DNA of 64,000 nucleotides from Enchytraeus crypticus (taxonomy: Eukaryota > Annelida > Clitellata > Enchytraeida > Enchytraeidae): the NCBI GenBank assembly GCA_905160935.1, contig CAJHZI010000696.1, positions 514,501-578,500 of the forward strand, given 5' to 3'. The notes beneath the pieces were generated by a model, which was not told the origin of the DNA, made no database searches, and saw only the letters and a program-made list of their open reading frames with translations. Positions 1,861 through 59,100 of the stretch are shown piece after piece (the first letter of the stretch is position 1; the number at the start of each line of letters is the position of its first letter). The translations under genes were made by a program, and so were the position numbers.

Positions 1861-3912
1861 TACATCTAAGTTTTGGTCTCTCTATTTATGCCTTTTATAT
1901 AAACCTTGTAGGCTGAAATGGTTTAGTTGTTTAGTTTGGTGTAAACAAGAAAAGAGATAGACAATTAGGTATATCATGAAGTCTATTTCACCGCGAAGTG
2001 AGTATAATCTATTCGAGTTTTTAATGCTCTTTAATAACAGAACAACAACAATACTGAGTTGTTATCTTGAAATAAGCATTCAATGATTGACGATCCAGAG
2101 TTTATTTGTCTATTTATTTTTATTAATTAAATTCTTTTAGTTTATTTTTTTAGGCTGAATTGATTTGAAGACGTAAACCACCAGTAAATGTAAATGTGTA
2201 GGAAGCATTGTATGACCATTGCCAATCGAGCTCGTGTCTATCGTCGTCTCTAATTGAATCGGACGTTAAACGCTTATAAAATATGCTTCTGAGCTCTTTA
2301 TGTTGATGTCAAATTTAAGAAAATAACCTATTTTAATAAACTCAGCGTCAGAAGATATTATTCAAGGATTTCATTAAATATTGAGCTGTATAACAGAAGT
2401 GCCCGGTTATTGCCTATTGCATAAATGCCGAATGAAACACGTCATGTTCTAGGTATAAAAACACTCTAGAAGTTTTGCTGCTTTAAGTGGACGTATGAAA
2501 TTTAATCCAATAATTTAAGAATACTTTAAGAAGTCAGTGATTCCGTCGAGAGCCTTCGTTCCAGTCTGATTTTTTAGTGTTATTTTTATTAGAAAGTCTG
2601 CTTTATTGATTTGTTAGAGTTATTATTATTAGTATTACGTCTCAATTTTTTGTTTGTTAGAGTTATTATAGAGTGATCGAATAAAACCCCATGAACCAGA
2701 AACGACTGCAGTTGTGCATTAGCATAGAACCGGTCTATACCGCGTAGCAAGTTGGGAAATAGTCTTTATGAGGAGCAGTATGTGCATGATTCAAATCCAG
2801 TGGTCGTCCCGTCATTAGCTTGCTTTCGAGACAGGAAACGGACGTTAAACTAGGGTCTAGTTTTTTTTTCTTTCGTCTTTATTTCATCATTAACTTACCA
2901 AGTAGTATCTCAGTAATGATTATGCTTTGCAGTATGATAGGTATCTGTATGTACCGCAGACTTACATTCTGTAGAACACAATACAGATAGTATACATTGG
3001 TATAGTCAATATAATTATATACATGGCAATGGCAGTTCACCACATATCAATATGGCAATCCGCGTTAAGCGGTATTTGAAAAACATTCATTTGAATGACA
3101 TTCCTTAAAGCAAAGTAACATCATCTCGTTTGATCGAGGCACTTAATGTGAAGAAGGCACTATAGTCCTACATACAATTTCCTTATTGTGGGGTTAAGTA
3201 CGCAAGAATGGCGTCATTATGTTTACTAGTCTATGACGCTAGTCAACTGTAAAGTGGACCTAGATTGTGCAGACTTCATAATTTTTTTGAAGTGTACCGA
3301 TTGCTCTTTTAATGTGTCAATTAGACCATTATTTAAATAAATATTTAGATATTTGTTGCAAATGTACAATTTTGTCAGGAGCACAAACACCTGCTACAAA
3401 TGTAAATTACTAATCCAGCGTAAGCTTGCTATACTACCATGATAATTTCACTTACTGATGTAAACCTGTTTTCATTGAGTTGGGTTAAAAATGCAATACA
3501 ATTAGTGTATTAACAGAATACAGACATACATACACGTATGTGTATATATATACGTATATATATCTATATATTTATATATATATAATTGTTAATTAATTGC
3601 AATATAACTTACTTGTAGATTAATATACCTTGTATTCCAAAGGCTAGATAGAATTCTTCATGCAGCATCTCTACAGAATTGCATTTACGTTATTCCAATT
3701 CTAGTTACTCACCTGGTAACCCCAGGTGTATAGCGAGAACTTTGGGCCTTAGTGTCACACTGATTGTATTTTGAAATAGAAATACGGTCATGACAACGAA
3801 GGTCAAGGTCATTTAAAGTCATCTGTATTTGCAGATTTGCACAGTTTTGAACTTTTTTTTTCAAGCGTAATGTATACCTGATGCATTTGAGCGAATCAAA
3901 CTGCATGATCGT
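1861..3912. other. No gene seen
   Basis: AT-rich unique-looking DNA with one diverged SINE (2715-2855) and a short TATA/TACGTA-rich run at 3525-3585. A small perfect inverted repeat (CACCTGG, five bases, CCAGGTG) is at 3710-3728. No exon could be supported. Confidence 0.6.
2715..2855 (+). mobile_element. Diverged SINE S2-like copy
   Basis: GATTCAAATCCAGTGG sits in the B-box place and GACAGGAAACGGACGTTAAA forms the tail. Confidence 0.5.
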
Positions 3913-25830: not shown

Positions 25831-26184
25831 CGTTCTGTGCGCACTGTATTATCTAATGGCAACATTACTCTTCCTTTTATTAGATTCTTGTTTCCCTTCT
25901 CTTCTCCTTTTACCCTGCAAAGGACCGAGCTGTGTCTAAACTGGAGATCAGTAAATTCTGAGTTCAAATTCATGGTTCGCCCGTAACTTATATGCTTTCG
26001 AGAAAAATAAACTGAAAATGAACATGTTTTTCACTTTAATTTCGTTATAATTAAGAGTCTGCGAGTTTTCTAAGCACAAAATTTGAATAATTACAAACAT
26101 GCTTAGTGAGGAAGTAAAAATTAACAATGGAGTTACCGCAGGGGAAGCAAAGCTGTCTGAGGTAATACCTGCAATAGTAGCTAG

Positions 26185-27082
26185 TAAGAGTGAATAGTAA
26201 CTAGTAACTGAATAATAACTAGTAACTGAATAGTAACTAGTAACTGAATAGTAACTAGTAACTGAATATTAACTAGTAACTGAATAGTAACTAGTAACTG
26301 AATAGTAGCTAGTAACTGAATAATAACTAGTAACTGAATAATAACTAGTAACTGAATATTAACTAGTAGCTGAATAGTAGCTAGTAACTGAATAGTAACT
26401 AGTAACTGAATAATAACTAGTAACTGAATAGTAACTAGTAACTGAATAATAACTAGTAACTGAATAATAACTAGTAACTGAATAGTAACTAGTAACTGAA
26501 TAATAACTAGTAACTGAATAATAACTAGTAACTGAATAGTAACTAGTAACTGAATAATAACTAGTAACTGAATATTAACTAGTAACTTAATAGTAACTAG
26601 TAACTGAATAGTAACTAGTAACTGAATAATAACTAGTAACTGAATAGTAACTAGTAGCTGAATAATAACTAGTAACTGAATATTAACTAGTAGCTTAATA
26701 GTAACTAGTAACTGAATAGTAACTAGTAACTGAATAATAACTAGCAACTGAATAGTAACTAGTAGCTGAATTGTAGCTAGTAACTGAATAGTAGCTTGTA
26801 GCGGTGAATTGTAGCTAGTGACGGTGAATATTGGCTAGTAACTGAATAGTGGCTAGTAGCTTAATAGTAGCTAGTAGCTGAATTGTAGCTAGTAACGGTG
26901 AATATTGGCTAGTAACTGAATAGTAGCTAGTAACTGAGTAGTGGCTAGTAACGGTAAATAGTAACTAGTAATGATAAATAGTAACTAGTAACGGTAAATA
27001 GTATCTAGTTATTCAATAGTAGCTAGTAACTGTGAATGGTAGCTAGTAACGGTAAATAGTAGCCAGTAACGGTAAATAGTAG
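26185..27082. repeat. 18-bp minisatellite, about 32 clean and 15 degenerate copies
   Basis: Unit TAACTAGTAACTGAATAG, with TAG/TAA/TTA variants; it decays after about 26780. Each unit carries ACTAGT inside a near-palindrome. Because 18 is a multiple of 3, the minus strand is open for 188 codons (LLVTIQ and LLVIIQ repeats). Confidence 0.95.
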
Positions 27083-30424: not shown

Positions 30425-30800
30425 AATAATAATGAATAAATCCGGCGATAAGCGAGAGACACAATAATAATAATTATTATGATAACAATAGTTATAAGAT
30501 ATTAATAATAATTATTAATAATAATATTTTAAATAATAATAATAATAATACAATTCGTTTATATCAAAACCTCGGGTTATTTACACCCGGGGTAAAATAA
30601 AATAATAAATAATATTTGCTTTCTATGACTTGCAAAGATTTAATGCAGTCTGCTTCAGCAATCCTTTTAAGTAGCTAGGTGACCTCGAGTAGCCAGGCGG
30701 CGATTCAGCATGTATTGCTCTAATCGCTGTTATCAAACCTCGGGTTCTTTACACCCGGGGTAATAAAAAATAATAATATCAATAATAATAATCATATAAT
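30425..30800 (+). mobile_element. Nested cluster of subfamily A LINE ends in AAT repeats (A2)
   Basis: A small piece (CCGGCGATAAGCGAGAGACA at about 30441-30460) matches the inside of copy A1. It is followed by AAT repeats and a solo 3' hairpin (30570-30592). Next comes GCAAAGATTTAATGCAGTCT, which continues the A1 sequence to a second hairpin (30738-30760) and an AATAAT tail. The arrangement looks like one truncated copy inserted inside another. Confidence 0.7.
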
Positions 30801-31805: not shown

Positions 31806-34792
31806 TCTTCTTCTTATCGTGTCCTCATACAGCATTAATCCAGCGTCTGACACAATTTCTCGCCCGATCATTAAACTCTCTGAGATCCTCACGCGTGACC
31901 CCACCACCGGTCAAGTTGCAGTTCATCAAATGATCAATGTCCTCCTCCTCCAAGCCGCATTCACATACTGTAAAACCATTATAGTAACCCTATCGGCTCA
32001 TTGCAACCTTTGTCCGACCGACACCTGTCCTAAATCTATTTAAGCATGATCAGGTTCGTCGATCCTCATCGCACCCACTCGGAAGACTTTCTGGCGCTTC
32101 TACACATATTTTATCCTCTGGAACTGATGTTCTTTGGAGATGTTCTCTCCACATCTGGAGACGAGATTGTTCCACTGACTGAGATAATGGCGACACTGAA
32201 TTTAAGAAGCTGTGCCTTGATTTGAGTCGCGATCTCCGAGGATTTTCACCATGTAATGGATGTCGTTGATCCTGTTCTTGTCTACTTCTTTCAGCTTGGC
32301 TAGCGACATTACATCTGATGGCTGGTGGTGCTATGCCAGAGAGCAAGTACAGACTGTCCTTACTTGTTGGTTTCAGGCAACCTGTTATATGACGACACGC
32401 AGCATTAAGAGCACTGTCAATTTTATGGGCATGTGTGGAGCGACCCCAAACAGCGCAGGCATACTCAGCGCTAGAGTAGCAGAGGGTCAATGCTGTGGAG
32501 CGTATTGTGTTGGCCTTTGCACCCCAATGAGTGTTCGCCAGTTTTCCTAATATTGAATTTCTTGTACTGACTTTTGCCTTCGTCTTTCCTACATGCTGCT
32601 TGAAACTCAGAGTCCTATCTACAGTTACACCAAGGTATACTGGGTGTGTACAGTGTTGTAGTTCTACATCTTCCCATGTAACTGTAAGCTCCTTACTAGC
32701 ATCCTTATCTCTTAAATGAAAGGCGCACACTTGTGTTTTTGTAGGATTAGGTTTTAAGTGATTTTCCACATAATATACCGACAGTGATTCTAGGACTTCA
32801 TTTAGTCGTTTTTCAATGTCACTGAAATTCTTAGACTGATATGCAGAACAGTTGTCATCAGCATAGATGAAACTTCTGGTATTCTGCATAATTGGCTGAT
32901 CATTCGTGTAGATGTTGAACAGAATAGGCGCCAAAACACTCTCTTGAGGAAGACCATTCTGCTGCTTCCTCCATCGTCTCTTTGGGTGACCTGCCAGTTC
33001 AACATAGAATCGATGATTCGTTAGGAGTTGTTGGATGAATTTAGTCAATTTATAATCCTTCGTTATGTTGTACAACTTTGTGATGAGTCGTCTATGGCAC
33101 ACAGTGTCGTATGCGGCTGACAAATCCACAAATACAGCTCCAGTAATGAGACCCTTCTCAAAGCCATCTTCGATGTATTGTGTTAGATTTACTATCTGAC
33201 TGGTGCATGATTTCCCTGGATGGAACCCACATTGCTGCTCTATCAACTTTTCATCGACTACTGGCAGCATTCGATTAAGGATCATGCGTTCTAGTAGCTT
33301 GTACGTATGGCATAGTAGTGATATAGGCCTGTAGCCTTTTGCATCATTGGGATCTTTTCCAGGTTTGAGTAAAGCTATAACTTTAGCTTGTCTCCATAAG
33401 CATGGTATTGTATAGTTTGTTATACATTCATTGTACAGCTCTAACAACCACGCTCTAGCCTTGATTCCAAAGTGCTTGATTAACTCACTCCCTTATGTCA
33501 TCTATTCCACATGCTTTGCCATTCTTTAGACAATCGATTGCAGTCAGAAGTTCGTCTGATGTGAATGGCTGCAATATACAACCACTGACTTGGGAGCAAC
33601 GTTGATCTGGTGCTATCTTTGGCCGTGATTCTTTTCGCGAACCCGTGGGGCTCTTACCATTAAGTATAAGTTGATGGGCAACCTGATTTGCTGTTACACT
33701 GCTATAGACTTTTGGCTTTGAGAAGTCGTTTGTTAGTATTCTAATATTTGACCAAGCCTTCTTGCTATTATGTGTCATATCGGTTGACTCAATCATATTC
33801 TGCCACTTCTTTTGTCGTTCATCTTCAAGTTCTACCAAAAGCTTATCGCCCATTGTTATAGTCTCCTCGTCAAATGGATCCCTGTCATAGGCTTCTGTAT
33901 ATGCCTGGTACAATTCTTTGTTTTCTTGTGTTAATCCGGGTATGTATTCAATCTTGCACTCGCGGGGGATATGCTTTCTTGCCACTCGTTTAATTTCCTT
34001 CATGAAGATTGTATAATCCTTGCTGCATGGTTTGATCCTATTGATAGATTTTTCAAGCTCATCGCTGAAACCGTCCCAGTCAGCCTTCTTGTAGTTAAAA
34101 CGGCGTCGAAATGGAACCTTATTCGGTGAAACCACTGCCTAAGTTTCCACAGCTATTGGTCTATGTTGTGTGTGAGGTATAGGAGACAGAACCTTTTTAT
34201 GACACATCTGTGATATCCGCTGACTGACAAAAATGAGATCTGGATTGTAACCTCTGCCCCAGCGTCCACTGTTGAATGAGCTTGGCTGCTTAGGATCATG
34301 GACTAATGTGAGCTGATTCATTTCTGCCCACAATTCCACCCTTCGCCCATCTTCGTTGCTTTCCTTGTAACCCCAGCTAGTGCTGTGGCTGTTAAAGTCC
34401 CCCACGAATATTTCTGGCATTCCTAACTTAGGAACTGTAGATCCATCTAACTTGAATTCGGTATTTGGCGGTTTATATATTGACGAAATTCCGACGCCAT
34501 CGATTTCTATTGGCAACTTTTCAATACCATTGCTATTTGACACTGACAGCATCGGCCTTCATGTTGTTCTTAATAAGTATGGCGCTGCCGTATTTAGCGT
34601 GTGGTGTTTCTGCGATTAGAGACATTCCATATACATTCGGTCTATAGTGTGTGATTTATCTCTGTGGGTTTCCTGTAGACAAAGTATCTGACAGTCTGTT
34701 TCCCGACATATTTCGGAGAGCAACTGCTGCTTTGGGGCCGATAAACCTTCAATTTTACAAGAAATAATATTGAACTGTTTAGCGCCCTCCAT
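31806..34792 (-). mobile_element. Jockey-like LINE (endonuclease + reverse transcriptase), decayed
   Basis: Read on the minus strand, an AP-endonuclease domain starts at the ATG 34792-34790 (MEGAKQFNIIS, then LCLQETH) and continues with GDFNSHSTSWGY and NPDLIFVS in 34139-34552. The reverse transcriptase follows: FVDLSAAYDTV (motif A), GLPQESVLAPILFNIY (motif B), FIYADDN (catalytic YADD) in 32050-33447. The C-terminal part reads LNRFRTGVGRTKVAMSR and EDLREFNDRARN down to about 31860. It is dead: frame damage in the endonuclease around 34560-34640, a TAG at 34139-34141, a one-base shift near 33485, a TGA at 32050-32052 and further stops after it. No ORF1 was recognised. It lies in PDE3 intron 1, opposite to the gene. 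Clade assignment is from motifs only. Confidence 0.9.
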
Positions 34793-38395: not shown

Positions 38396-39283
38396 GTTTA
38401 TATTGATTAGTGCTCTCTCAATTAGCAGATACTTGAGAATCAAATTAAAGAGCTCTCAATCAAAACACTGCTATTTGGCAATGCCGATTGTTCCTCTTCT
38501 TGACACTGATAAAGTGGCACCACTTTGAAATATATTTCATTTAAGATGAATTTCAAACTCAAAGATGAATGAATATAAGTTGATTTCAAACTCTGCAACT
38601 GTCTTTTTCCATTTTTCGACATGCTCCAAAATCTATCAGTGAGAATTTAACCCCTGGTTCCTCACCCGAAGTCGATATCAGGGAAGTTGCAAGAGGACCT
38701 GCAACCTCATATTAGCACGCCAACTGAAGACACTGGTAAATCACCCTGCATTTGGGAGACCGAACAAAATCACGCAATGAAATTAGTATCAGTCCAACGT
38801 CTAAAACATGAGGATCCGCTCAGGCGTAGATTCTCCAGGAATGATTAGTCTTAGCTTGTCCAGCAAAGTTTCATTGCAGTTTCATTGATTAAAGATAATA
38901 TTACAAAAAATTGTAGTGGAAAAAATTCCATTTTGTTGTTGAGTAGCAACATTCAATGGTTCTGTATCATTGTAGATAGACATTTTCGAAATCTTTTTCT
39001 GTAGCTAATTCTATTGTGGTCGCGTAGTTTTTCTACATTAAAGTACAATAAATGTATATATATTCTAAGTATATTAGATATAAAAATAGGTAGGAGTGTT
39101 GCTAGATGATTTAAAGTTTCACTCATATGTAGATATTTTATTAGTTTCAAATTTAAATTTAGTTTTTGTTAAGCTTATTATTACTATTGAATTCTGTCTG
39201 TAAAGTAGTCTTGAAGACCAATTTCTGCCATGACACTGCTATGTAAGATTTCGTTTGTTAATAATAATAATAATAACAATAAC

Positions 39284-39316
<33 letters not shown>
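38396..39316. other. PDE3 intron 3, unique part
   Basis: Contains a reversed SINE-like tail at 38640-38720 and ends in the (AAT)n run at 39263-39315 that flanks LINE copy A1. Nothing else recognised. Confidence 0.5.
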
Positions 39317-39317
<1 letters not shown>

Positions 39318-40003
39318 GTGTCGTGTAGCCGTTAGTTTCCGTTTAGGGGCGAAAATTTGCGAGCCTCGTATATGCCCCTGCGGTCATGAAGTCGACGCTA
39401 TAGGTCTCCACGGCCTCTCCTGCAAACGCAGCTCAGGTAGAATGTCTCGCCATCACAATTTAAATGACTTAATATGGCGAGCACTTTCAAGAGCAGGCAT
39501 CCCTTCCTCTAAGGAACCAAGTGGGTTGTCCAGATCAGACGGCAAGCGTCCGGACGGCTTGAATTTAGTGCCCTGGTGCAACGGTAAATATGCCGTATGG
39601 GACGTCACGGTCATTGACACTATGGCAAACTCCTACCTGAATACGACTTCAGTCACAGCCGGTGGAGCTGCTGTTCATGCCGCCTCTAGGAAGTTGGATA
39701 AATACCGTGATCTGTCCTTAGGCTATGAAGTTGTTCCGGTGGCTATTGAAACCATGGGCCCGATGAATCCCGAAGGAGTTGACTTTATTAATGGCATAGG
39801 CAGACTTATTGCAGAGCAAACCGGCGATAAGCGAGAGACATCTTTTCTTTGGCAAAGGCTTTCCAGGACTTTGCAAAGATTTAATGCAGTCTGCTTCAAT
39901 AATTCTTTTAAGCCGATTGATGACCTCGAGTAGCCGGGCGGCGATTCAGCACATATTGCTTGAATCGTTTTTATCAAACCCCAGGTTCTTTACACCGGGG
40001 TAA
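39317..40003 (+). mobile_element. LINE C-terminus (CCHC + PD-(D/E)XK-like nuclease), copy A1
   Basis: The frame is open from 39346 to the TAG at 39931-39933. It has a zinc knuckle CPCGHEVDAIGLHGLSC (CX1CX9HX3C), then [17 protein letters not shown], then KRPDGLNLVP and VWDVTVIDT, a PD-x15-D arrangement like restriction-like endonucleases of R2/R4-type LINEs. It ends TLQRFNAVCFNN and a short 3' region with a hairpin at 39979-40000. It is flanked by (AAT)n at 39263-39315 and an ATA-rich tail at 40004-40060. The 5' part with the reverse transcriptase is missing. The tail ends about 31 bases before PDE3 exon 4. R4/Dong-like identity is inferred. Confidence 0.72.
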
Positions 40004-40091
40004 AAATATTATAATAAAAATAAATAATAATAATAGTAGTAATAATGCTAATAATAATAGAGAGAACTGAATTTTGCCACCGTATTTCCAG

Positions 40092-40259: not shown

Positions 40260-40298
40260 GTAACACAAATCTACTGTCAAAGTTAACACAGAATTTAG

Positions 40299-40505
40299 AA
40301 TGTCTTAATAGCGTAGGGGTAACGTTATGAAGTTTTAAATGACAGATCTTTAGGTGAATTGAACCCTTGTGGGTTCGAATCCCGGCCGCGCTGATCTGAG
40401 AGTAAAATCTCGGACATTCACTGGACTGGTTATACGGAAAATGGTCTAAATTGCCTAACGGTTTACACATGTGGTAATAAAAAGTGATAGATATCAACAT
40501 AGATG
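40299..40505 (+). mobile_element. tRNA-derived SINE, family S1
   Basis: GAATGTCTTAATAGCGTAGG begins the head, GGGTTCGAATCCCGG is the B box, and GAGAGTAAAATCTCGGACAT is in the tail. It starts about 40 bases after the exon 4 donor. Confidence 0.8.
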
Positions 40506-41344
40506 ATTATTCACTATAATGCGTGTTTACTATTTTACTTTACAGTTAACTATCAGTTACAGTCAGTTAATTTACTCTCTAAATTAACACTGTAAAGAAA
40601 CTCCCTAAACTAAAAGCAACTCTGTAAATTAACTCTCTAATTTAACTGTTGAAAATGAAATAAAGTAAATTCTAACTGAATGAATTTAGCTCGAGTATAA
40701 TGTTATAATTACTTTTTAAAAATTTAAAATTTAAAATTTAAAAATTACAAATTTGTTTGCTGAATGTATCCAACTTTCTATGTAAACTGTTCAGAAGCAA
40801 GCCCTGTCAAATTGAGGCACAATTAAGCTATCTTTTGTACCCTGGTATGATTACTTGCCGGTTAATTTTAAAACTAACATTAACAAGCTGTATTTATGGA
40901 ACATTACAAAAATAGAATTTACTAATAAATCATTGATTAAATTCTTCCATTCCTTAATTGTTTGATATATTATTTATTTGGACTTAATCAATCAATATAT
41001 GCAATCAAAATTTCAGTCAGGAATTCGAAGAGTAGAAGTAAACTTCTTTTAGGCATCATTATAACAATGAGCAGAAGAATCGGGATGGAGATTTGTAAAA
41101 TTTTGATTTTATACTCCCTAGGTTGTGCAAAGGATTTTGTTTGCACTCCCTATCATCAACTGTACATCCTCCACGTATAATGTGCTGCACAAGACACAGA
41201 GCTATAGCTACATTTTCAAACGTTATTTTAAGGAGTTGCTCTGCCTAGGCTTCAGGAATTGCTACAAAATTTAATCGAATGGAAACGTCTCAAATAGGGG
41301 ATTGATTGATGGATGATATGATGTTTGGCAGAGAGGATTTGAGA

Positions 41345-46155: not shown

Positions 46156-46483
46156 AACTCATAATTTTAGTCTGCATCTACTTTATTTGCGTATTTACTA
46201 ATTAAGTTTTTGTTCTCCGAGGTGACGTGTCTTATAATGTTGTTTATGCCTTAGAGTAAATATAGGCTAGAGACAAGGTCCAATACTAAACGTCCTATTG
46301 GCTGGGAAGCCATTCAGCCTACTATTTGAATCTATCCCCTACATTTTCGAAAATGTGAATTTGTATTTCAATTGTAATAAACTATATTCTATTTAATTAA
46401 GAAATATTATATATTATTATTTTATTTACTAAATATATTTTTGGCTATATTACAGTTTGAATTTAATTAGAGTGTAAATGTTT

Positions 46484-46722
46484 TAGAATGTCTCAATAGC
46501 GCAATGGTTAAGGGTGTAGATAACGTCATGAAGTTTAAAATGACAGACCCTGAGGTAAATTGAACTCTCGTGGGTTCGAATCCCAGCCGCGCTGACCTGA
46601 GAGTAAAGTCTCGGACATTCACTGGACTGGCAACACGGAAAATGGACTAAATTGCCTAATGGATATAACATATGGTATTAAAAGTGATAGATATCAACAT
46701 AGTTGATCATTCACTTTAATGT
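46484..46722 (+). mobile_element. tRNA-derived SINE, family S1
   Basis: The head has an A-box-like TAGCGCAATGG and a perfect B box GGTTCGAATCC at about 46573-46583. The tail contains GCGCTGACCTGAGAGTAAAG and TCGGACATTCACTGGACTGG. Similar copies are at 40299, 58872, 45925, 13488 and, reversed, 10190. The spacing between A and B boxes is longer than in a tRNA gene, as in SINE heads. It lies in PDE3 intron 5. Confidence 0.8.
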
Positions 46723-49035: not shown

Positions 49036-49680
<645 letters not shown>

Positions 49681-55324: not shown

Positions 55325-55392
55325 TTTATCGCCCTGGGCTGTATAGGGCCCTGGGCTAAAAAAATAAGATAAAAGAAGGACTTTATTATTAG
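55325..55392 (-). mobile_element. Solo 3' end of subfamily B, copy B2
   Basis: Hairpin arms GCCCTGGGC at 55331-55339 and 55348-55356 match copy B1, as does the AAAAGAAGGACTTTATT-like stretch beside it. Nothing of the coding part is left. It sits at the tail of copy A3, so three pieces are chained. Confidence 0.65.
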
Positions 55393-55439: not shown

Positions 55440-55886
55440 TTACCCCGGTGAAAAGAACCTGGGGTTTGATAAAAACGATTCGAGCAATACATGCTGAATC
55501 GCCGCCCGGCTACTCGAGGTAATCAATCGGCTTAAAAGAATTTTTGAAACAGACTGCATTAAATCTTTGCAAAGTCATGGAAAGCCTTTGCCAAAGAAAA
55601 GATGTCTCTCGCTTATCGCCGGTTTGCTCTGCAATAAGTCTGCCTATGCCATTAATAAAGTCAACTCCTTCGGGATTCATCGGGCCCATGGTTTCAATGG
55701 TCACCAGAACAACTTCATATCCTAAGGACAGATCACGGTATTTATCCAACTTCCTAGAGTTGGCATGAACAGCAGCTCCACCGGCTGTGACTGAAGTCGT
55801 ATTCAGGTAGGAGTTTCCCATAGTGTCAATGACCGTGAGGTCCCATACGGCACATTTACCTTTGCACCAGGGCACTAAAGTCATGC
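55440..55886 (-). mobile_element. LINE nuclease-domain fragment, copy A3 (5' truncated)
   Basis: On the minus strand the ORF at 55510-55884 starts inside the nuclease (TLVPWCKGKCAVWDLTVIDT) and runs to a stop after KPIDYLE. It is very similar to copy A1 at 39.4-39.9 kb. The 3' hairpin is at 55443-55464 and an ATAAA-rich tail follows. The 5' end stops at an ATT-rich run that is the tail of copy B1. It lies in PDE3 intron 9. Confidence 0.75.
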
Positions 55887-55934
55887 CACTATTATTATTA
55901 TTATTTTTTTTATTATTTTTTTTATTTTTTATTT

Positions 55935-57257
<1,323 letters not shown>

Positions 57258-57639
57258 GGAGATGAGGAATCGAAGCTAGGACTACCCATATCACCATACA
57301 TGGATCGACGATGTCCTCGCCTTGCCTCGCTCCAGGACTCGTTCATATCTCACTTGGTCGCCCCTTTGTGCATGGCTCTGTACGCCGCTGAGCTGCTCCC
57401 GGGGTCCTGGGTTCCAGTCCAGACCCAGTCCGGCAATCAGTCCCGTCGTGCCACGCTGTCACCACAAGCCCCGCCCCTCGAGGCTGAAATAAATGTGAGT
57501 GGTCTGAGATCTGACGACAGTACTGATGAGGCTGAAGGAACGGATGAAAACTATAATGACGAGGATGCAACGGCAGATGATGATGAGGAGGACGGTGATG
57601 GCGGGAGCGTTGAAAAAGGAAGCAAAGATAAAGGAGATG
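57258..57639 (+). CDS. PDE3: PDE3 exon 11 (catalytic C-terminus and acidic stretch)
   Basis: The acceptor TTTGATAG ends at 57257 and lies at the end of a GATT-rich repeat. The peptide begins [20 protein letters not shown] and has [17 protein letters not shown]. The Gln in LQDSFI corresponds to the purine-binding glutamine of phosphodiesterases, with Phe close behind as the ring-stacking partner. The catalytic part ends around AELLPGSWV. After that comes a strongly acidic segment ([20 protein letters not shown]), as in vertebrate PDE3. The donor GGAGATG|GTTTGT at 57640 leaves phase 1. The ORF extension to 57704 is intron. Confidence 0.95.
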
Positions 57640-58818: not shown

Positions 58819-58871
58819 AGTAAATTATTGTCACACTCTATTTAATAATTTTGAATGTTTCCATAGCATAG

Positions 58872-59100
58872 TGAATGTCTCTATAGCGTAGTGGTATCGT
58901 CATGAAGTTTTAAATGATAGATCATGAGGTGAGTTGAACCCTCGTGAGTTCGAATCCCAGCCGCGCTGATCTGAGAGTAAAATTTCGGACATTCACTGGG
59001 CTGGTTATACGGAAAATGGTATAAATTGCCTAGCGGTTTAAACATGTGGTATTAAAAAGTGATAGATATCAACACAGTTGATCATTTCACTATAATGTGT
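58872..59100 (+). mobile_element. tRNA-derived SINE, family S1
   Basis: GAATGTCTCTATAGCGTAGT begins the head, GAGTTCGAATCCCAG is the B box, and the tail runs to ATCATTTCACTATAATGTGT. It ends about 75 bases before PDE3 exon 12. Confidence 0.8.

What the first reader, a model, noticed from the sequence alone, without database searches (positions are those of the whole stretch)
39263..40060. LINE nuclease fragment set inside an AAT microsatellite
Seen: a CCHC knuckle plus PD-x15-D nuclease-like ORF bounded by (AAT)n on both sides. Known: R4-clade LINEs such as Dong of Bombyx mori carry a restriction-like endonuclease and insert into TAA repeats. Inferred: this is a TAA-targeting R4/Dong-like LINE in a different animal, and copies A2, A3 and B1 repeat the pattern.
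Basis: partly seen in the sequence, partly recalled or inferred. Interest (0 to 1): 0.72.

Follow-up and report, generated by a model that had tools for sequence, protein, structure and literature searches.

The report
Jumping gene homing to AAT repeats

Summary
Window 39316-39933 is an open frame with a Cys/His knuckle and RPD-x15-D, set in AAT repeats. It is the 5'-truncated, 97%-identical end of a 3.36-kb LINE ("A") with one ~991-aa protein: N-terminal Cys/His cluster, reverse transcriptase, knuckle, restriction-like nuclease. Its 3' hairpin core occurs 2,088 times in the 524-Mb genome. Seventeen full-length copies differ by 0.63% on average. Of 58 A copies, 57 have AAT runs on at least one side, 52 on both (random points: 0.025%). 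In a rule-based sample of 40 3' ends, 38 have AAT downstream. A second family ("B", 52% protein identity; window B1, B2) is looser: 9 of 14.

So "TAA-targeting LINE with a restriction-like nuclease" is well supported. "R4/Dong" is not shown. The polymerase sides with R2 against APE-type LINEs (92/92, long branch), has YLDD instead of F/YADD, an unusual knuckle spacing, an N-terminal Cys/His cluster and no ribozyme that Rfam recognises. No R4 sequence was available for a tree. It is either a very divergent R4 relative or a separate lineage that reached the same target.

The parts
39260..39315 (+). 5' target flank of A1: (AAT)n
   Evidence: (AAT)5 and (AAT)10
39321..40000 (+). A1: 5'-truncated family A copy (last 680 bp of a 3,355-bp element)
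   Evidence: 97.4% identical to L009 element positions 2676-3355
39316..39933 (+). Open frame: knuckle plus restriction-like endonuclease motifs (RPD-x15-D, KLDKY)
39979..40000 (+). 3' terminal hairpin CCCCAGG..CCGGGG
   Evidence: read; fold of the same unit in L009; exact 21-nt core 2,088 times genome-wide
40001..40060 (+). A-rich tail and 3' target flank (AAT)n
55443..55887 (-). A2: truncated family A copy
   Evidence: 96.4% to L009 element 2911-3355
30618..30760 (+). A3: truncated, older family A copy
   Evidence: 87.5% to L009 element 3213-3355
30550..30593 (+). A4: 3'-tail-only copy between AAT arrays
   Evidence: hairpin match; boundaries approximate
55941..56505 (-). B1: truncated family B copy (RPD-x15-D, KTLKY)
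   Evidence: (AAT)7 and (AAT)4 at its 5' side, 56507-56541
55331..55383 (-). B2: 3'-tail-only family B copy next to A2
   Evidence: hairpin; followed closely by a repeat motif also found beside other copies

Best explanation
A1 is the truncated 3' end of an autonomous, recently active LINE. Inferred mechanism: the single protein binds its own RNA through the conserved 3' hairpin; the restriction-like nuclease nicks the TTA strand of an AAT/TTA array; the A-rich RNA end pairs with that strand and is reverse transcribed (target-primed reverse transcription); and copying often stops early, giving 5'-truncated copies. Shown: anatomy, copy number, youth, AAT flanks, fixed orientation, 3' hairpins, R2-like polymerase, nuclease motifs. 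Inferred: nicking, priming, RNA recognition, and the nuclease fold.
For: 57 of 58 A copies with a 3' end have an AAT run of 3 or more on at least one side and 52 of 58 on both; the opposite orientation (ATT) occurs upstream in 4 and downstream in 6 of 58. In a rule-based sample of 40 3' ends, 38 have AAT and 3 have ATT within 120 nt. On the forward strand, 699 of 1,051 hairpin cores have AATAATAAT after a gap of 0-30 nt. 17 full-length copies: mean divergence 0.63%, variable sites at codon positions 14/21/52. A profile of A+B finds only R2 proteins below E 1 in the PDB (best 9.8e-8), with sub-threshold colinear alignment into the R2 knuckle/nuclease region. Tree: A+B with R2 against APE-type LINEs 92/92. 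RPD-x15-D, KxxKY, W(L/I)xALP and the knuckle are conserved in A and B. The 3' ends of A and B fold into hairpins, z -2.6 (A, L009), -2.9 (B2) and -1.8 (B1).
Against: No activity shown. The nuclease has no Pfam match and no PDB match of its own, and both AlphaFold models are unusable (pLDDT 37.5 and 31.5). One A copy lies in an AATC-type repeat instead (L046). At a run of 5 or more, only 32 of 58 have AAT on both sides and 6 on neither. Family B misses AAT runs downstream in 5 of 14 copies, and of the 9 hits one (L076) sits mainly in an ATT array. The 58 copies came from top-scoring hits, half of the loci chosen for long frames, so they are not a random draw. The tree fork is not starred, the branch to A+B is very long (2.6), A's letter make-up is flagged as odd, and A+B fall beside a partial R2Bm row inside the R2 rows (83/84), so its exact place is unsure.
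Confidence: 0.87

Rival explanations
1. It is a true member of the R4/Dong clade whose polymerase and N-terminus have diverged.
For: Same target: R4/Dong insert into (TAA)n in most insects, molluscs and cnidarians (PMC7998251, passages). Same general layout: RT followed by a restriction-like nuclease. R2-side polymerase.
Against: YLDD in both families, although AF/YADD is reported in all non-LTR elements (PMC3774820, passages). Conserved N-terminal Cys/His cluster where R4/Dong are reported to lack zinc motifs, and no Myb hit. No Rfam ribozyme at the 5' end. No R4 sequence was available for comparison.
Confidence: 0.4
2. It is a separate lineage of restriction-nuclease LINEs (new, or known under a name not identified here) that reached the TAA target independently.
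For: The departures listed against R4, the very long branch to A+B, and two families 52% identical that share these departures.
Against: No R4 reference in the tree. Single odd residues can change within a clade. No paper naming such a lineage was seen: (with YLDD) returned 0 papers, and the listings show none by title or abstract start; but those listings are partial and the library lacks Repbase and most subscription papers.
Confidence: 0.55
3. The AAT repeats are products of the element (tail slippage or tail addition) rather than its target.
For: The A-rich tail grades into AAT in many copies.
Against: AAT also lies upstream of the 5' end in 16 of 17 full-length copies and within 80 bp upstream of 53 of 58 copies.
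Confidence: 0.06
4. Insertion is into any AT-rich DNA; the AAT arrays are just the commonest such sites.
For: Several family B copies and the A copy L046 use other AT-rich or AATC-type sites.
Against: 57 of 58 A copies have AAT runs, mostly on the element's sense strand, although the window also holds long AT and TGAT-type repeats. Use per available base was not measured.
Confidence: 0.07

Closest known systems
R4/Dong clade LINEs (Bombyx Dong, Ascaris R4, Darwinula Dong)
   Same: Restriction-like nuclease behind the RT; Dong-type insertion into (TAA)n repeats (PMC7998251, passages)
   Different: YLDD instead of F/YADD; N-terminal Cys/His cluster, no Myb found; unusual knuckle spacing; no ribozyme found by Rfam. 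No sequence comparison with R4 was possible
R2 LINEs (PDB 8gh6, 8ibw, 9nl2, 9nl3, 9dou)
   Same: Closest solved polymerases; linker LP motif, knuckle, PD..D and KX2KY in the same order (motifs from PMC5678591, passages)
   Different: R2 targets 28S rDNA; R2Bm reads YADD; the match is remote and the branch very long
HERO and NeSL clades, including (TG)n-specific Togen
   Same: Restriction-nuclease LINEs with some microsatellite-specific families (PMC4640811, passages)
   Different: Targets named in the passages differ; sequences not compared

Membership tests
Restriction-like-endonuclease (RLE) LINEs | LINE-type RT that groups with RLE elements | tested here: met
   A+B with R2 against APE-type LINEs, 92/92, not starred, long branch; only R2 proteins below E 1 in the PDB. 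R2 was the only RLE clade available
Restriction-like-endonuclease (RLE) LINEs | PD..D plus KX2KY nuclease motif at the C-terminus | tested here: met
   RPD-x15-D and KLDKY/KTLKY in A and B; motif definition from PMC5678591 (passages). Motif only; the fold is not shown
Restriction-like-endonuclease (RLE) LINEs | Knuckle with CX2-3CX7-8HX4C spacing | tested here: inconclusive
   Three Cys and one His conserved between RT and nuclease, but spacing C-x1-C-x9-H-x3-C in both families
Restriction-like-endonuclease (RLE) LINEs | Single open reading frame | tested here: met
   One frame of 1008-1092 open codons in 18 of the 20 loci fetched for long frames and 982 in B; in L009 and L049 only about 300 bp of element lie upstream of the first Met
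R4/Dong clade | Insertion into (TAA)n (Dong type) | tested here: met
   57 of 58 A copies on at least one side, 38 of 40 sampled 3' ends; B 9 of 14
R4/Dong clade | AF/YADD in the RT, reported for all non-LTR elements | tested here: not met
   YLDD in A and B; statement from PMC3774820 (passages)
R4/Dong clade | N-terminal Myb-like domain without zinc motif | tested here: not met
   Conserved CSVC..QLH..HLHG..C cluster; no Myb hit in Pfam with max_evalue 10. The Myb of R4 is itself hard to detect, so its absence alone is weak evidence
R4/Dong clade | HDV-like ribozyme at the 5' end | tested here: inconclusive
   No ribozyme match by Rfam in A or B; whether Rfam models catch the R4/Dong ribozymes was not checked
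R4/Dong clade | RT groups with R4 and Dong in a tree | not testable with these tools
   No R4/Dong sequence came up in any search; the original papers are not held
APE-type LINEs (Jockey, L1 and others) | Endonuclease/exonuclease/phosphatase domain upstream of the RT | tested here: not met
   No such Pfam hit in the full A protein; the window's other LINE does have one

The most novel reading that the evidence does not exclude
An undescribed deep lineage of restriction-nuclease LINEs, marked by YLDD, a C-x-C-x9-H-x3-C knuckle and an N-terminal Cys/His cluster, has independently evolved targeting of AAT repeats. It spreads partly by seeding the AAT tails of a short repeat family in the opposite orientation, while a sister family (B) in the same genome shows relaxed specificity.
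Probability: 0.35. Interest if true: 0.62.

Novelty: new variant of a known kind. Interest (0 to 1): 0.44.

Why it matters
Nuclease-guided LINEs that choose their own site are the basis of current gene-insertion work with R2. This is a young, very numerous one with a simple target and two sister families of different strictness in one genome, which makes the cause of specificity comparable. If it lies outside R4, targeting of TAA repeats arose at least twice. It also shows how a LINE can build up in simple repeats without using up its target.

Tried and rejected
Rejected: chance ORF (thousands of candidate relatives and 2,088 exact 3' ends); AAT made only by the element (5' flanks); an APE-type LINE.

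Led nowhere: relatives in IMG/VR and in GTDB genomes: none confirmed. PDB search with the nuclease alone: nothing; with the A1+B1 profile only an unrelated E 0.47 match. Two AlphaFold models, pLDDT 37.5 and 31.5, too poor for a fold search, so none was run; the helix/strand order of the first (a-b-b-b-a-b in the nuclease part) fits the described fold but carries no weight at that confidence. Rfam hits (MS2, SAM-II, CrcZ) are far below gathering scores. The 5' 150 nt of L009 fold no better than shuffles (z 0.36). dS between A and B is saturated. Flank clustering lumped most flanks together through AAT and shared repeats and told nothing. Literature: (with YLDD) and one search returned 0 papers; listings (partial) show no paper on such a lineage. 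PMC3124438 (passages) reports abundant AAT repeats in a shrimp, with no such LINE in the passages shown; PMC3747384 (passages) and PMC7650587 (passages) added nothing decisive.

Not answered: the genome-wide count for the opposite orientation (ATT) and the wider-gap AAT counts.

Full report
What is in the window. Frame 39316-39933 (+) is open for 205 codons and carries CPCGHEVDAIGLHGLSC, RPD-x15-D and KLDKY. It lies in AAT repeats on both sides. By comparison with a full-length copy (L009), the element part is 39321-40000 (97.4% identity to element positions 2676-3355), ending in a hairpin. The window holds two more A copies at that search's threshold (30618-30760 and 55443-55887), a copy of a second family B (about 55941-56505) and two very short 3' tails (about 30550-30593 and 55331-55383). 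Exons of a PDE3 gene lie in the same window, so the host is taken to be an animal; its name is not known. A1's downstream array ends about 30 bp before what reads like a further PDE3 exon (my reading, not tested).

The element. The genome (524 Mb, 802 contigs) gave 8,924 first-look candidates for the A nuclease (150 scored) and 7,911 for B (150 scored). These candidate lists may overlap and are not copy counts. The exact 21-nt core of the A 3' hairpin occurs 2,088 times, with none for the reversed control. Full-length A is 3,355 bp to the end of the hairpin and encodes a ~991-aa protein; one full-length B copy has a 982-codon frame. A and B proteins are 52% identical. Both have an N-terminal Cys/His cluster, RT with YLDD, W(L/I)xALP, a C-x-C-x9-H-x3-C knuckle, RPD-x15-D and KxxKY. 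Of the 20 loci fetched for long frames, 17 hold a full-length copy; these differ by 0.63% on average (0.06-1.1%), with variable sites at codon positions 14, 21 and 52 and 12 outside the frame, which fits recent spread under protein constraint. They were picked for intact frames, so older copies are under-represented (A3 in the window is 87.5% identical).

Target. Among 58 A copies with a 3' end, found in 40 fetched loci plus the window (20 loci taken for long frames, 20 in listing order; one doubled row, L027, dropped), AAT runs of 3 or more lie within 80 bp upstream in 53, within 100 bp downstream in 56, on both sides in 52 and on neither in 1. At runs of 5 or more the figures are 44, 40, 32 and 6. 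Random window points: 0.66%, 0.77% and 0.025% for both (20,000 draws). The single miss (L046) lies in an AATC-type repeat. A rule-based sample (first listed hairpin on each of the 40 contigs that appear in the printed part) gave AAT within 120 nt downstream in 38 of 40 and ATT in 3 of 40. Genome-wide on the forward strand, 699 of 1,051 hairpin cores have AATAATAAT after a gap of 0-30 nt; tails are often longer than that. The reverse-strand figure counts one place several times and is not used. The opposite-orientation count stayed unanswered.

Family B is looser. Of 14 further copies, 9 have an AAT run of 3 or more downstream. Of the 12 that keep the hairpin it is 7; the two without it were judged on 200 nt, and one of these (L076) adjoins mainly an ATT array. 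Upstream of six full-length copies, 4 have such a run, though in L069 not next to the element; L059 is in an AATC-type repeat. One copy (L068/L069) has a 12-bp repeat, AAAAGGCCGAAT, on both sides, which may be a target-site duplication outside any AAT array (my reading). L049 and B1 themselves have AAT on both sides.

Seeding and neighbours. In 9 of 40 sampled 3' flanks a shared motif (GGTTTAACGTCCGTTTCCTCAT, up to 5 mismatches) follows within 120 nt, in one orientation only; in 6 of the 9 it stands directly behind an AAT run (my count of the printed flanks). The window holds 10 such motifs on both strands together. With a slightly shorter motif, 9 of 58 downstream flanks have it in this orientation and 1 in the other; upstream flanks have 2 and 2. 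The simplest reading is a short repeat family with an ATT tail that the LINE enters in the opposite orientation; calling it a SINE is my inference. Eight adjacent same-strand A pairs lie within 150 bp of each other in 7 of 41 sources, so arrays are used repeatedly.

Ends. The tail between hairpin and first (AAT)3 has a median of 29 nt and is 81% A (55 copies that have one). The A and B 3' ends fold into hairpins (z -2.6 for L009, -2.9 for B2, -1.8 for B1).

Kinship. A profile of A+B against the PDB gives only R2 proteins below E 1 (9nl3 9.8e-8; 9dou, 8gh6, 8ibw, 9nl2), with sub-threshold alignment into the R2 knuckle and nuclease. The window's APE-type LINE, used as control, finds LINE-1 first. 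A tree of 14 polymerases, including three R2 fragments and a LINE-1 fragment, places A+B with R2 at 92/92 (not starred) on a branch of 2.6 changes per column. Within the R2 side A+B stand next to the partial R2Bm row (83/84), which I do not trust. Seven other LINEs of this genome were labelled APE-type by their RT only.

R4/Dong. The target matches (PMC7998251, passages and the figure-legend section). Against membership: YLDD where AF/YADD is reported for all non-LTR elements, and no Rfam ribozyme where R4 and Dong are reported to have one (PMC3774820, passages); the N-terminal cluster where R4/Dong are reported without zinc motifs. None of these replaces a tree with R4, which could not be made. 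From memory, not from any call, similar YLDD proteins are common in marine invertebrate gene sets, so the lineage may be widespread and may have a name that I did not find.

Verdict. The observation and the core inference (a TAA-targeting LINE with a restriction-like nuclease) are right. The clade assignment is open.

Noticed in passing
window 32050-34558 (-): A broken APE-type LINE: RT (RVT_1, E 4.5e-30) and an Exo_endo_phos_2 endonuclease piece in neighbouring frames.
   Followed up: partly
window 49333-49611, 57258-57419 (+): Exons matching PDE3 phosphodiesterases; other frames in the window read like further exons of the same gene (not tested).
   Followed up: partly
L049 1-320 and 3880-3951: The full-length B copy lies between sequences that read like pyruvate carboxylase exons, a few bases behind a likely splice donor (my reading, not tested).
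   Followed up: no
window 26047-27070: Long array of an 18-bp unit (TGAATAGTAACTAGTAAC-like), one of several minisatellites in the window.
   Followed up: no
window 40279-40511, 46480-46712, 58854-59086: Dispersed 233-bp repeat (66-88% identity between copies) with a tRNA-like stretch (GGTTCGAATCC), probably a SINE.
   Followed up: no
L013 5' end: A copy whose 5' end joins an inverted piece of the same element, like twin priming.
   Followed up: no
L024: A full-length A copy followed in the same AAT array by the 5' part of a B copy.
   Followed up: partly
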